Source of the DNA: Roseibacillus persicicus
Lineage (GTDB): Bacteria > Verrucomicrobiota > Verrucomicrobiia > Verrucomicrobiales > Akkermansiaceae
Length of the DNA: 64,000 bases
NCBI RefSeq assembly: GCF_014651675.1
Contig: NZ_BMXI01000014.1
Location: 62,001 to 126,000, forward strand
Direction: 5' to 3'
The translations under genes were made by a program, and so were the position numbers. The notes under the pieces are model-generated. The model ran no database searches. It had not been told where the DNA came from and saw only the letters and a program-made list of their open reading frames with translations. How positions within the stretch are numbered: the stretch's first letter is position 1; each line of letters starts with the position of its first letter. Shown piece by piece: positions 9,596 to 37,862 of the stretch.

Positions 9596-9615
9596 GACAG
9601 GGGACAGGGGACAGG
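9596..9615 (+). repeat. Upstream heptamer array, GACAGGG x2.9
   Basis: A perfect period-7 repeat beginning on the base after the gmd stop codon. It forms the left boundary of the inserted four-helix-bundle gene. A reverse-oriented related heptamer array lies on the right side at 10024-10067. Confidence 0.8.
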
Positions 9616-10023: not shown

Positions 10024-10067
10024 CTGCCACCTGCCACCTGCCACCTGCCACCTGCCACCTGCCACCT
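10024..10067 (+). repeat. Downstream heptamer array, CTGCCAC x6.3
   Basis: Six perfect copies of a 7-base unit plus CT, starting three bases after the four-helix-bundle stop codon. Read on the other strand the unit is GTGGCAG, related to the GACAGGG unit upstream. Two copies of a 16-base unit (CCTAAAAYCCTTCCCA, 10065-10096) follow directly and reach the fcl start region. Confidence 0.9.
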
Positions 10068-10106: not shown

Positions 10107-11069
10107 ATGTCTGACTCCAGCAACCTCACTCCAGCAACCTCCCAAAAATACTACGTCGCCGGCCATCGCGGCATGATCGGTTCCGCTCTCGTCCGTGCCC
10201 TCGAAGCGAAAGGCTGCACGAACATCGTGAAACGCACTTCTGCCGAGCTCGACCTGCGAGACCAGGCCGCGACCCATGCTTTCCTCGCGGAGGAAAAGCC
10301 GGACGTGGTCATCATCGCAGCCGCTAAAGTAGGCGGGATTCATGCCAACAACACCTATCCGGCCGAGTTCATTCACGAAAACCTCCTGATTCAGGATAAT
10401 CTCATTCACGGCAGCTACCAGGCTGGGGTGGAGCGCCTGGTCTTTCTCGGTTCCTCCTGCATCTATCCCAAGCTCGCCGAACAGCCTATGCGAGAGGATG
10501 CTCTCCTCACTGGCCCGCTTGAGCCCACCAACGAGGCCTACGCCATCGCTAAGATTGCGGGCCTCAAGACCTGTGAATATTACCGCAAACAATACGGCGT
10601 CACCTATCACTCGGTGATGCCCACCAACCTTTACGGACCGGGCGATAACTATCATCCCGAGAATTCTCACGTTCTTCCCGCTCTCATTCGACGCTTTCAC
10701 GAGGCCAAGGAACAAAACCTCACCGAGGTCGTGATGTGGGGGACCGGTTCTCCGCTCCGTGAGTTTCTTCATGCCGATGACTGCGCGGCCGGGATTCTCC
10801 ATCTCCTCGAACTCGAAGAGCCGCCTGACCTCGTCAACTTGGGGAGCGGAGTCGAAATCACCATCAAAGACCTCGCTCATCTCATTGCCAAAATCGTGGG
10901 CTTTGAAGGCGAAATCACCCATGACCTCAGAAAGCCGGATGGAACTCCACGCAAACTGATGGATTCCAGCCTTATTCGTTCTCTCGGCTGGAGCGAAATT
11001 CATAGCCTCGAGTCCGGAATACAGCATGCCTATGACTGCTTTCTTCGCGATGGCCTCGTCGAACGCTAA
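10107..11069 (+). CDS. fcl: GDP-L-fucose synthase
   Basis: 320 residues. The NADP-binding motif [10 protein letters not shown] begins near residue 19, SSCIYP lies near 118, and the catalytic YAIAK near 145-149. It carries out the epimerase/reductase step from GDP-4-dehydro-6-deoxymannose to GDP-L-fucose, following Gmd. The first 14 residues contain a small duplicated stretch (SNLTPAT then a second CCAGCAACCT at DNA level), so they may be an extension from the adjoining repeats and the real start is slightly uncertain. Confidence 0.95.
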
Positions 11070-11142
11070 AGGGAGCGCGAGTTTTAACCCGCCCCACCAA
11101 ACTCGTCTCACTCCCTAGGCCTAAAACCACACCTTCTTCGCG

Positions 11143-20395: not shown

Positions 20396-22507
20396 ATGAG
20401 AGTTTCGCTTTGCCTCAAAGCAATGAAATTGCGGTTCATCATAGTCTCTCTATGGGTGGGGCTTTGTGTTCCTCTGATTGGGTTTTTGCTTTTGCGATCG
20501 AGTCCTCGGGCGCAAGGCATCGTAATTTTTCCTTCTGAAATAGCCGCTTGGCTCGATAGTCATTGGGATCTACGAACGTGTGTCATGGCGTTGGGGGTCT
20601 CTCTGGTTCCGGCTTTTCTCTTCGTACGAGACTCTCTCCTACGCCGATTGATTCTCGCTGCGCTTTTGCTTTGCTTGTTGCTGGGGGAGTTGGTGCAGAT
20701 CTGGCTCCCTCTTCGAACCTTCTCTTGGATAGATATCGGGTTTTCAGTTTTAGGGGTGGCGGTTGCGGAGTTACTGGCGGTTTTAATGAAGGGGGCAGGA
20801 AGAGCGTGGCAGGGAGAAGGATTTAGGTTGCAGGAGTCGGGCGGCAGGAATCAGGAATCAGGAAATCCGAGTGCGGGCTTTTCTCCTCAGCAGTTAGCGC
20901 AGACCGAAGAAAAATTGACTCCCGACGCCTGTCCGCTGACTCCTTCCTCACAATCACATTCTACACACATGAAAGTCTTAATCTATGGATTGAACTATGC
21001 TCCGGAGTTGACAGGGATTGGGCGCTACACGGGCGAGATGGGGCCTTGGCTCCAGAAGAGTGGGGTCGACGTAAGGGTGGTAACGACGCCTCCTTATTAC
21101 CCTCATTGGAAGATAGCGGATGGTTATCGCAAGTTTTGGTTTCAGAAAGAAGTTGTTGAGGGGGTTCCGGTCTGGCGTTGCCCTTTTTACGTTCCCGCGA
21201 AGCCTACGACCATGAAGCGGTTGGTTCACTTGGGAAGTTTTGCTGTAACCGGGTTCCTAGGCCTCTGGCGGCATTTGCTCTGGCGACCGGATTGGGTCTT
21301 CATGGTGGAGCCGGCGAGTATGACCGTTCCGGGTGGGTTGATTTTTGCCAAAGTGGCAGGTGCGAAGTCATGGTTGCATGTCCAGGACTTTGAGATGGAG
21401 GCGATGTTGGGCTTATCCAAGGAGTTGGACAGCAAGACACAAGACAACAAGACCCAAGACACAAGAGGGGTAGCTGAGAAGGAAGTTGTTGCTGGCGGTG
21501 GTTCGCTGGATTCAAGGAGCGCGGACTTGAGTCCGCCCCAGAGCAAAGGGGAGTTAGTCGATTCGGTGGGGCGGACTGAAGTCCGCGCTTCAGGGGAAGG
21601 GGCTGTGGAGCGAGCTGCCTCCTCCGCTGAAGCCTCGAAGCCCGCAAGAGCTCGCAGACCGTTGGGGTTGCAATTGGCGGCGGGATTGGAGGCTTGGTTG
21701 AAGCGGCGCTTTGACCGGACTTCGTCCATTTCGCGGGTGATGATGGGGAAGCTGGCGGAGCGAGGGATTCCTGAGGAGAAGATTTCTTTTTTCCCGAATT
21801 GGGTTGATATCGATTTCATGTCTCCGGGGGAGCCCAAGCGAAACTTCCGGGAAGAGTGGGGCATCGGGAAGGGTGAGTGTTTCGTGCTCTATTCTGGTAA
21901 CATGGGCCGCAAGCAGGGCTTGGAAATGGTGCTCGAGGTGGCAGAGAGGCTTGAGAAAGAAGAGCGAGTTGCCTCCTCTGCTGAAGCTTCGAAACACGGG
22001 GGGGCTCATGGTCCGCTCTTTCGGTTCGTGATTGTAGGGGAGGGAGCGGCCAAGGAGGAGTTGATGGCGGAGGCGGAAAAGCGGGGGCTGAAGAATATTC
22101 AGTTCCATCCTTTGCAGCCCTACGAGGATCTTCCTGATTTGCTACGTTCTGCTGATGCGCACCTGGTGGTTCAGAAGAAGGGGGCGGCTGATGCGGTCTT
22201 GCCCTCGAAATTGACTTCCATCCTGTCGGTGGGAGGCAATGCCATCATAACCGCGGAGAAGGACACTGAGTTGGGGCGACTGGATGAGAAGTTTCCCGGG
22301 ATGGTTACTCTGATTGAGCCCGAAGATGCCGGAATCCTGACGGACTGTCTCAAAAAGAAGGGAGCCTACTATCGGGAAACGGTCCTGAACGAGCAAGCCC
22401 GGGATTATGCGGAGCGATTCCTGGAGCGGGATGCGGTCCTGGGCCAGGTTCGACTCGAAATGTTGGAGGGATTGGGGAAGAGCGAATCGCTGGTTCCTGC
22501 CTCATAG
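20396..22507 (+). CDS. VanZ-like membrane domain fused in frame to WcaI-like glycosyltransferase
   Basis: 703 residues. Residues 10-135 form a VanZ-like domain with four or so helices and the signature Q-I-W-L-P-L-R-T-F-S-W-I-D. A 55-residue low-complexity linker (about 140-190) encoded by repeat-like DNA follows. A complete GT4 enzyme then starts at Met192 (20969), reading MKVLIYGLNYAPELTGIGRY, as in WcaI of colanic acid synthesis. The GT domain carries two extra in-frame repeat insertions at about 343-422 and 523-539. Translation could also begin at 20969, giving a 512-residue enzyme; in that case the N-terminal part is a separate VanZ-like gene that has lost its stop codon. Confidence 0.8.
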   Translation: MRVSLCLKAMKLRFIIVSLWVGLCVPLIGFLLLRSSPRAQGIVIFPSEIAAWLDSHWDLRTCVMALGVSLVPAFLFVRDSLLRRLILAALLLCLLLGELVQIWLPLRTFSWIDIGFSVLGVAVAELLAVLMKGAGRAWQGEGFRLQESGGRNQESGNPSAGFSPQQLAQTEEKLTPDACPLTPSSQSHSTHMKVLIYGLNYAPELTGIGRYTGEMGPWLQKSGVDVRVVTTPPYYPHWKIADGYRKFWFQKEVVEGVPVWRCPFYVPAKPTTMKRLVHLGSFAVTGFLGLWRHLLWRPDWVFMVEPASMTVPGGLIFAKVAGAKSWLHVQDFEMEAMLGLSKELDSKTQDNKTQDTRGVAEKEVVAGGGSLDSRSADLSPPQSKGELVDSVGRTEVRASGEGAVERAASSAEASKPARARRPLGLQLAAGLEAWLKRRFDRTSSISRVMMGKLAERGIPEEKISFFPNWVDIDFMSPGEPKRNFREEWGIGKGECFVLYSGNMGRKQGLEMVLEVAERLEKEERVASSAEASKHGGAHGPLFRFVIVGEGAAKEELMAEAEKRGLKNIQFHPLQPYEDLPDLLRSADAHLVVQKKGAADAVLPSKLTSILSVGGNAIITAEKDTELGRLDEKFPGMVTLIEPEDAGILTDCLKKKGAYYRETVLNEQARDYAERFLERDAVLGQVRLEMLEGLGKSESLVPAS
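20822..20960 (+). repeat. Heptamer-like mosaic forming the VanZ/WcaI linker
   Basis: Contains GGAATCAGGAATCAGG (period 7). Towards its end, read on the reverse strand, it gives four degenerate 7-base units (GGAGTCA, GCGGACA, GGCGTCG, GGAGTCA). It lies where an intergenic spacer would be expected, yet has no stop codon in the VanZ frame. Confidence 0.6.
21424..21660 (+). repeat. In-frame repeat insertion 1 within the WcaI-like gene
   Basis: Starts with five units of a degenerate heptamer (ACAAGAC, 21432-21467). Two oppositely oriented copies of a palindromic element with core GCGGACTTGAGTCCGC follow (about 21516-21540 and 21567-21592), able to pair over about 23 bases. It ends with a 33-base segment (21608-21640) that recurs at 21962. 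The encoded low-complexity stretch, rich in Ser, Asp, Lys and Glu, lies between conserved parts of the GT-B fold. Confidence 0.75.
21962..21994 (+). repeat. In-frame repeat insertion 2 within the WcaI-like gene
   Basis: Matches 21608-21640 at 29 of 33 positions, in the same reading frame, encoding ERVASSAEASK against ERAASSAEASK. Three of the four differences are synonymous. Confidence 0.8.
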
Positions 22508-36402: not shown

Positions 36403-37862
36403 GTAGGGCGGTTTTGATCAAACAGCCGCGGATTTGGGGGAATCCTGAGAGGGCGTCTGGAAAGTGCCAAGCGAGCGTTCTTGATATCAGCTCGCTGAAG
36501 TGCTGGTGGAGTGGACGTCTCGTTCACTTGTTGTTCGGTTGAATGGGTGGACGAGAAGGCCTTCCGTTGGACCGCGAGTGCCCTCACTCGCCCCACCGAA
36601 TCGTCCCGCCCAGGCGTTGAGATGTCGTTGAACAAGTCGGGCGACGTTCACCGGTAGGGCGGTTTCGGCGAAACAGCCGCGAATGTTCGGGGAAGGTCCC
36701 CAGGCTCTCGCCCTTCGTCCGCGAGGGAACCTCTCGAACAAGCCAGAACTCTCGCGGTCCTTTTATCAAAAGGACCCTACCGGGGGGAGTCGAGAGTGCG
36801 GTGTGGGGGTTTGGGTTATTTGGTGGGGGGCACTCTTTGATTCGGGGTGGCTGGGAGGTTGAGCAAGCAAGCTTTGCTCTTCCCGGGGAGTTCCGAGAAC
36901 GAAGACATCCACCCTAGAGCGGCAGCAAGCGGCACGCACTCCAGAAGGCCTTCCGTTGGACCGCGAGTGCCCTCACTCGCCCCACCGAATCGTCCCGCCC
37001 AGGCGTTGAGATGTCGTTGAACAAGTCGGGCGACGTTCACCGGTAGGGCGGTTTCGGCGAAACAGCCGCGAATGTTCGGGGAAGGTCCCCAAGCTCTCGC
37101 CCCTCGTCCGCGAGGGAACCTTTCGAACAAGCCAGAGCTCTCGCGGTCCTTTTATCAAAAGGACCCTACCAGGGTGGGTCGAGAGTGCGGGGTGGGAGTT
37201 TGGGTTGTTTGTTGAGGTGCACTCTTTGATTCGGGGTGGCTGGGAGGTTGAGCAAGCAAGCTTTGCTCTTCCCGTGGGGGATAAAGAACGAAGACATTCA
37301 CCTCAGAGCGGCAGCAAGCGGCACGCACTCCAGAAGGTCTTCCGTTGGACCGCGAGTGCCCTCACTCGCCCCACCGAATCGTCCCGCCCAGGCGTTGAGA
37401 TGTCGTTGAGCAAATCGGGCGACGTCCGCCGGTAGGGCTGTTTCGCCGAAACAGCCGCGAATGTTATGGGAGGGTCGTCGGGCTCTCGCCCTTCGTCCGC
37501 GAGAGAGCCGTTCGAATAAGCTAGAACTCTCGCGGTCCTTTTATCAAAAGGAACCTACCGGGGTGGGTCGAGAGTGCGGGGTGGGAGTTTGGGTTGTTTG
37601 GTGGGGGGCATTCTTTGATTCGGGGTGGCTGGGAGGTTGAGCAAGCAAGCTTTGCTCTTCCCGTGGGGGATAAAGAACGAAGACATCCACCTCAGAGCGG
37701 CAGCAAGCGGCACGCACTCCAGAAGGCCTTCCGTTGGACCGCGAGTGCCCTCACTCGCCCCACCGAATCGTACCGTCCAAGCGTTGAGATGTCGTTGAGC
37801 AAATCGGGTGACGTCCACCGGTAGGGCGGTTTCGCCGAAACAGCCGCGAGTGTTCTGGGAGC
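36403..37862. repeat. Tandem array with a 389-bp unit, about 3.4 copies
   Basis: The segment AGAAGGYCTTCCGTTGGACC starts at 36554, 36943, 37332 and 37721, exactly 389 bases apart each time. Three full units and the first 142 bases of a fourth are present, with a rearranged partial copy at 36403-36553. Each unit holds several hairpins: GCGAGTG/CACTCGC, GGCGGTTTCG/GAAACAGCCGC, GGTCCTTTT/AAAAGGACC inside CTCTCG/CGAGAG, and GAGCAA/TTGCTC. Units differ at scattered positions. Short frames recur on both strands but show no coding character. Confidence 0.92.

What the first reader, a model, noticed from the sequence alone, without database searches (positions are those of the whole stretch)
21424..22013. 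Repeats and palindromes inserted in frame inside a glycosyltransferase gene
The WcaI-like gene carries a heptamer stretch, an inverted pair of GCGGACTTGAGTCCGC elements and two copies of a 33-base segment 354 bases apart, all without breaking the frame. The 33-base copies share a frame, and three of their four differences are synonymous, as if selected as peptide. This recalls Rickettsia palindromic elements, which insert in frame in coding genes.
Basis: partly seen in the sequence, partly recalled or inferred. Interest (0 to 1): 0.7.

Follow-up and report, generated by a model that had tools for sequence, protein, structure and literature searches.

The report
Palindromic repeat inside a glycosyltransferase gene
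A small mobile palindromic DNA repeat (a pair of inverted REP sequences, probably once moved by a RAYT transposase) sits in frame inside the linker of a WcaI-like sugar-transferase gene of a Roseibacillus-like bacterium; such in-gene REP repeats are already known, but here part of the repeat's DNA has changed far less than the silent sites of the surrounding gene.

Summary
The repeats and palindromes are real and in frame. The inverted pair (21516-21591) is a REP doublet (REPIN-like): relatives of its arms lie outside credible genes elsewhere in this genome, and such doublets flank a frameshifted RAYT transposase gene on contig C20. The same kind of doublet precedes a truncated RAYT in another genus of the family. 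In wcaI it lies in the interdomain linker of an intact VanZ-WcaI fusion gene under strong purifying selection. The syntenic Roseibacillus ishigakijimensis orthologue carries it at the same place; the JB023 homologue does not, so the insertion is old. The comparison speaks against selection on the peptide: in spacer, right arm and tail 1 of 22 third codon positions differs, against 70 of 153 in the adjacent core, and the five differences are spread over all codon positions; the left arm has turned over. The claimed synonymous bias of the 33-base copies is not significant (P about 0.1), and that element was found nowhere else. Heptamers and 46-nt copies are separate additions at two indel-tolerant loops. 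In-gene REP dimers were described in 2013, including in a verrucomicrobium. New member of a known kind; the nucleotide-level conservation is the one unexplained point.

The parts
20396..22507 (+). Intact VanZ-like/WcaI fusion ORF, 703 aa; WcaI part starts at Met 20969
   Evidence: NCBIfam PRK10307 E 9.5e-140, above its cut-off; VanZ match is weak (E 0.066, below the Pfam cut-off)
20845..20864 (+). CAGGAAT heptamer repeat (2.9 copies) in the VanZ-WcaI junction
   Evidence: in a gap of the R. ishigakijimensis orthologue (alignment)
21428..21466 (+). GACACAA heptamer array (5.3 copies), start of the linker insert; only a remnant in R. ishigakijimensis
   Evidence: similar arrays at C10:60887 and C8:16248
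21516..21540 (+). Left REP, GGAGCGCGGACTTGAGTCCGCCCCA
21541..21566 (+). Spacer of the REP doublet; 2 differences in 27 nt (21539-21565) from R. ishigakijimensis; not found elsewhere in this genome
21567..21591 (-). Right REP (inverted), GAAGCGCGGACTTCAGTCCGCCCCA; its 16-nt palindrome is identical in R. ishigakijimensis
21608..21653 (+). 46-nt repeat, copy 1, in the interdomain linker; most of it falls in a gap of the R. ishigakijimensis orthologue
21962..22007 (+). 46-nt repeat, copy 2 (80% identical, same frame), in a second length-variable loop; R. ishigakijimensis has a different insert there

Best explanation
The inverted pair is a REP doublet (REPIN-like non-autonomous element), probably once moved by a RAYT (Y1 HUH) transposase. 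It inserted in frame into the inter-domain linker of wcaI in the common ancestor of this organism and R. ishigakijimensis, after the split from the JB023 lineage. The linker tolerates length change, so the enzyme kept working and the element is presumably translated as about 25 extra residues (RSADLSPPQSKGELVDSVGRTEVRAS). It persists as tolerated DNA, not because the peptide is useful. Later the window lineage expanded a heptamer array beside it and gained two copies of a 46-nt segment, one in the same linker and one in a second tolerant loop. Shown: the anatomy, the dispersed copies, the RAYT association, the shared position, the intact and constrained gene, the non-coding pattern of change. 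Inferred: movement by RAYT, translation, neutrality for the enzyme, the order of events.
For: Dispersed REPs: 15 copies elsewhere in this genome within 3 mismatches, against 2 for the reversed control; another at window 11072. Those ORFs overlapping REPs that were tested have no Pfam domain. Of 14 Y1_Tnp genes one, at C20:80249-80680, has an inverted doublet on each side, the second arm upstream being degenerate with 4 mismatches. In a genome of another genus (G089) the same kind of doublet lies just upstream of a truncated relative of that gene, 66% identical over 47 residues. A doublet elsewhere in G011 has the same left/right loop asymmetry (CTTGAG/CTTCAG) as the one in wcaI. JB023 lacks the insert, R. 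ishigakijimensis has it in the same place of a syntenic locus. dN/dS 0.02-0.03 in the core. Very stable hairpin as single-stranded DNA, z -8.1.
Against: The head is GGAG/GGAC, not the GT(A/G)G of described REPs. Copy number is low. The RAYT next to the REPs is frameshifted, so present mobility is unlikely; most other RAYT relatives scanned lack this REP type nearby. The arms in wcaI are one base shorter (16 nt) than the majority type in this genome (17 nt). Spacer and right arm are too well conserved at silent sites for a simply neutral old insert (17 of 18 same-residue codons identical against 134 of 298, P 2.8e-5; the segment was picked after looking).
Confidence: 0.78

Rival explanations
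1. The spacer and right arm are maintained as DNA or RNA: a protein-binding site, an mRNA structure, or an internal signal inside wcaI under selection at nucleotide level.
For: Between this genome and R. ishigakijimensis 1 of 22 third positions changed against 70 of 153 in the core; changes spread over codon positions 2/2/1; perfect 16-nt palindrome kept.
Against: The large hairpin is not kept in R. ishigakijimensis (RNA z -1.8; left arm changed at 10 of 24 sites). No Rfam match. Only one pair of species; region chosen after inspection.
Confidence: 0.12
2. Recent parallel insertion, or a short conversion or transfer tract, put nearly the same doublet into the two species independently of the old gene divergence.
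For: Low divergence of spacer, right arm and tail (5 of 66 sites) inside a gene saturated at silent sites; the left arms belong to different REP types, that of R. ishigakijimensis resembling the GCGAG/CTCGC REPs of G011.
Against: The spacer was found in no other place of either genome; insert sequence just upstream (21476-21514) is diverged like old coding sequence; R. ishigakijimensis has at most one other weak REP.
Confidence: 0.12
3. The inserted peptides are selected: the repeats were recruited as a linker peptide of WcaI.
For: Frame kept in both species; the two 46-nt copies share the frame and 3 of 4 differences in their 33-nt core are synonymous.
Against: P about 0.1 for that bias; dN/dS over the doublet 0.75 against 0.02-0.03 in the core; four residue changes but one silent change in 22 codons of the right half; JB023 lacks it all.
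Confidence: 0.04
4. Not an element at all: a low-complexity, hypervariable linker in which palindromes and repeats arose by slippage.
For: Both sites vary in length between species; the heptamer does look like slippage.
Against: Both arms match dispersed REPs with the same head and tail, which occur in inverted doublets and next to RAYT genes.
Confidence: 0.03

Closest known systems
Intragenic GTAG/CGTC REPs and REP dimers (Di Nocera et al. 2013, PMC3733652), including Opitutus terrae (Verrucomicrobia)
   Same: REP dimers inside ORFs, encoding 20-30 residues, apparently tolerated; [quoted passage not shown]
   Different: Head here is GGAG/GGAC, not GTAG or CGTC; the target is a polysaccharide glycosyltransferase, whereas many listed targets are DNA repair genes; here an insert-free homologue and an insert-bearing orthologue date the event
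REPINs and RAYTs (Nunvar 2010, PMC2817692; Bertels and Rainey 2011, PMC3116915)
   Same: Two inverted REPs forming a long hairpin, similar spacing, doublets flanking a Y1 HUH transposase gene, mostly extragenic
   Different: Low copy number, head not GT(A/G)G, RAYT frameshifted here, one copy inside a gene
Rickettsia palindromic elements (Ogata 2000; reviewed in PMC2229807)
   Same: Palindromic elements inserted in frame in conserved genes without destroying them
   Different: RPEs are 105-146 bp with other sequence and, for RPE-4/6, CGTC tags; many genes hit in one genome

Membership tests
REP/REPIN-RAYT system | Short GC-rich imperfect palindrome able to form a hairpin | tested here: met
REP/REPIN-RAYT system | Inverted doublets with regular spacing | tested here: met
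   45-52 nt start to start in wcaI, C20, G089, G128 and G011; a few pairs are wider (C1, 139 nt)
REP/REPIN-RAYT system | Cognate Y1 (PF01797) transposase gene flanked by the REPs | tested here: met
   C20 gene has doublets on both sides; G089 truncated gene on the upstream side. Other RAYT relatives scanned lack this REP type within 1.5 kb
REP/REPIN-RAYT system | GT(A/G)G head | tested here: not met
   head is GGAG or GGAC; some TnpA-REP classes lack GT(A/G)G (PMC6006769), so called REP-like rather than a canonical REP
REP/REPIN-RAYT system | High copy number | tested here: not met
   about 15-20 copies here, up to 31 in another genome
REP/REPIN-RAYT system | Movement by RAYT | not testable with these tools
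   needs a cleavage or excision assay
Rickettsia palindromic elements | Sequence and CGTC-type tag of RPE | tested here: not met
   head GGAG; tag definition from PMC3733652
Rickettsia palindromic elements | In-frame insertion in several protein genes of one genome | tested here: not met
   one gene only among the REP copies looked at

The most novel reading that the evidence does not exclude
A REP doublet caught inside a coding gene has become a DNA- or RNA-level functional site: its spacer and right arm are held at nucleotide level against a silent-site-saturated background while the encoded peptide is free to change.
Probability: 0.12. Interest if true: 0.6.

Novelty: new member of a known kind. 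Interest (0 to 1): 0.38.

Why it matters
It adds a vertically inherited case of an in-gene REP doublet with a homologue lacking it and an orthologue keeping it, in a genus where the REP type can be tied to a RAYT gene. That allows a direct test of whether such inserts are kept for peptide, for DNA, or for nothing. It also links GGAG/GGAC-headed palindromes of this verrucomicrobial family to RAYTs.

Tried and rejected
Peptide selection on the 33/46-nt copies: not significant. 46-nt element as a dispersed repeat: none elsewhere in this genome or in 96 relatives within 3 mismatches. Rfam: no match. Solved structures: no sequence relative at E 1e-5. AlphaFold model with three sequences: mean pLDDT 46.8, too poor to use; the insert has pLDDT 21-31 and no predicted secondary structure, only weakly suggestive. 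Wider WcaI sampling: only genomes of the window's own genus gave strong matches among 195 family and 387 phylum genomes. A conserved mRNA hairpin as a folding pause between the domains: considered and rejected because the large hairpin is lost in R. ishigakijimensis. REPs in other genomes' genes: of 10 overlapping ORFs only one had a Pfam domain (YkuD), with the REP in a probable false N-terminal extension. Two requests failed.

Full report
Observation. The ORF at 20396-22507 is open throughout and encodes a weakly VanZ-like N-terminal part joined to a WcaI glycosyltransferase. The heptamer stretch, the inverted pair and the direct repeat exist as described and exceed shuffled controls. The direct repeat is 46 nt, not 33.

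What the inverted pair is. A BLAST of the insert against the whole genome shows that its pieces recur separately: heptamers at C10 and C8, and the arms of the inverted pair on C2, C3, C8 and C20. A consensus search lists 15 copies of GCGCGGRYYTTNAGYCCGCCCCA within three mismatches, against 2 for the reversed control. They lie outside credible genes as far as looked at: the overlapping ORFs tested have no Pfam domain. They carry a GGAG head and mostly a CCCCA tail and occur as singlets and as inverted doublets. Of 14 Y1 transposase (PF01797) genes one, on C20, has such doublets on both sides. Its N-terminal and C-terminal parts are in different frames (+2 and +1, aligned with L087), so it is broken by a frameshift in this assembly. 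In G089, a genome of another genus of the family, the same kind of doublet lies directly upstream of a truncated relative of that transposase. 29 of 195 family genomes have this palindrome type. A doublet in G011 reproduces the architecture of the wcaI doublet, including the CTTGAG/CTTCAG loop asymmetry. These facts identify the pair as a REP doublet.

Position and age. The insert lies between the two domains of the enzyme: the JB023 homologue goes from KEL to the conserved KRxFDR region with a much shorter, unrelated linker, while R. ishigakijimensis has the doublet. The locus is syntenic with R. ishigakijimensis: acetyltransferase upstream, sugar transferase and PEP-CTERM-type protein downstream. 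The simplest reading is one insertion after the JB023 split. A second loop (around 21962) is also length-variable. The 46-nt copies occupy both loops in this genome only.

Mode of evolution. The wcaI core has dS near 1.7 and dN/dS of 0.02-0.03. Over the doublet the pattern is different. The left arm differs at 10 of 24 sites, with two double changes that keep pairing and two single changes that break it, and in R. ishigakijimensis it looks like the GCGAG/CTCGC REPs of G011. The spacer, right arm and tail (21539-21604) differ at 5 of 66 sites, spread 2/2/1 over codon positions, while 70 of 153 third positions of the adjacent core differ. The segment was chosen after inspection, but it is also the best window of its size in the whole gene. 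So the peptide is not what is being kept. Whether the DNA is kept by selection, was refreshed by conversion, or is an accident of one comparison cannot be decided with two sequences.

Literature. REPs inside genes, many of them dimers encoding 20-30 residues, were catalogued by Di Nocera and colleagues (PMC3733652), with the verrucomicrobium Opitutus terrae having most intragenic GTAG repeats. They also state that most REPs are intergenic and argue that in-gene insertions are largely neutral. RAYT-flanking REPs and doublets as the mobile unit come from PMC2817692 and PMC3116915. Rickettsia elements are reviewed in PMC2229807.

Verdict. The finding is a new member of a known kind, with one open point at nucleotide level.

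Naming. Equating G024 with R. ishigakijimensis and G011 with JB023 is an inference from matching sequence and positions.

Noticed in passing
window 36554-37860: 389-bp tandem satellite (3.4 units) carrying a REP-like palindrome GGACCGCGAGTGCCCTCACTCGCCCC (four copies) and a GTAG-headed palindrome such as GGTAGGGCGGTTTCGCCGAAACAGCCGCGA; related units at C11:181559-182356 (spacing 390) and C5:140003.
   Followed up: partly
window 20396-22507: VanZ-like and WcaI parts form one ORF here and in R. ishigakijimensis, but are apart in JB023 with another gene between them.
   Followed up: partly
window 11072-11095: A further REP copy (GGAGCGCGAGTTTTAACCCGCCCC) a few bases after the end of ORF 10107-11069.
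   Followed up: yes
window 9596-9615, 10024-10067, 20845-20864, 21428-21466: Several arrays with a 7-bp period but different units (GACAGGG, CTGCCAC, CAGGAAT, GACACAA).
   Followed up: no
L057 1220-1803 (contig C20): The RAYT gene next to the REPs is split by a frameshift between its N- and C-terminal parts.
   Followed up: yes
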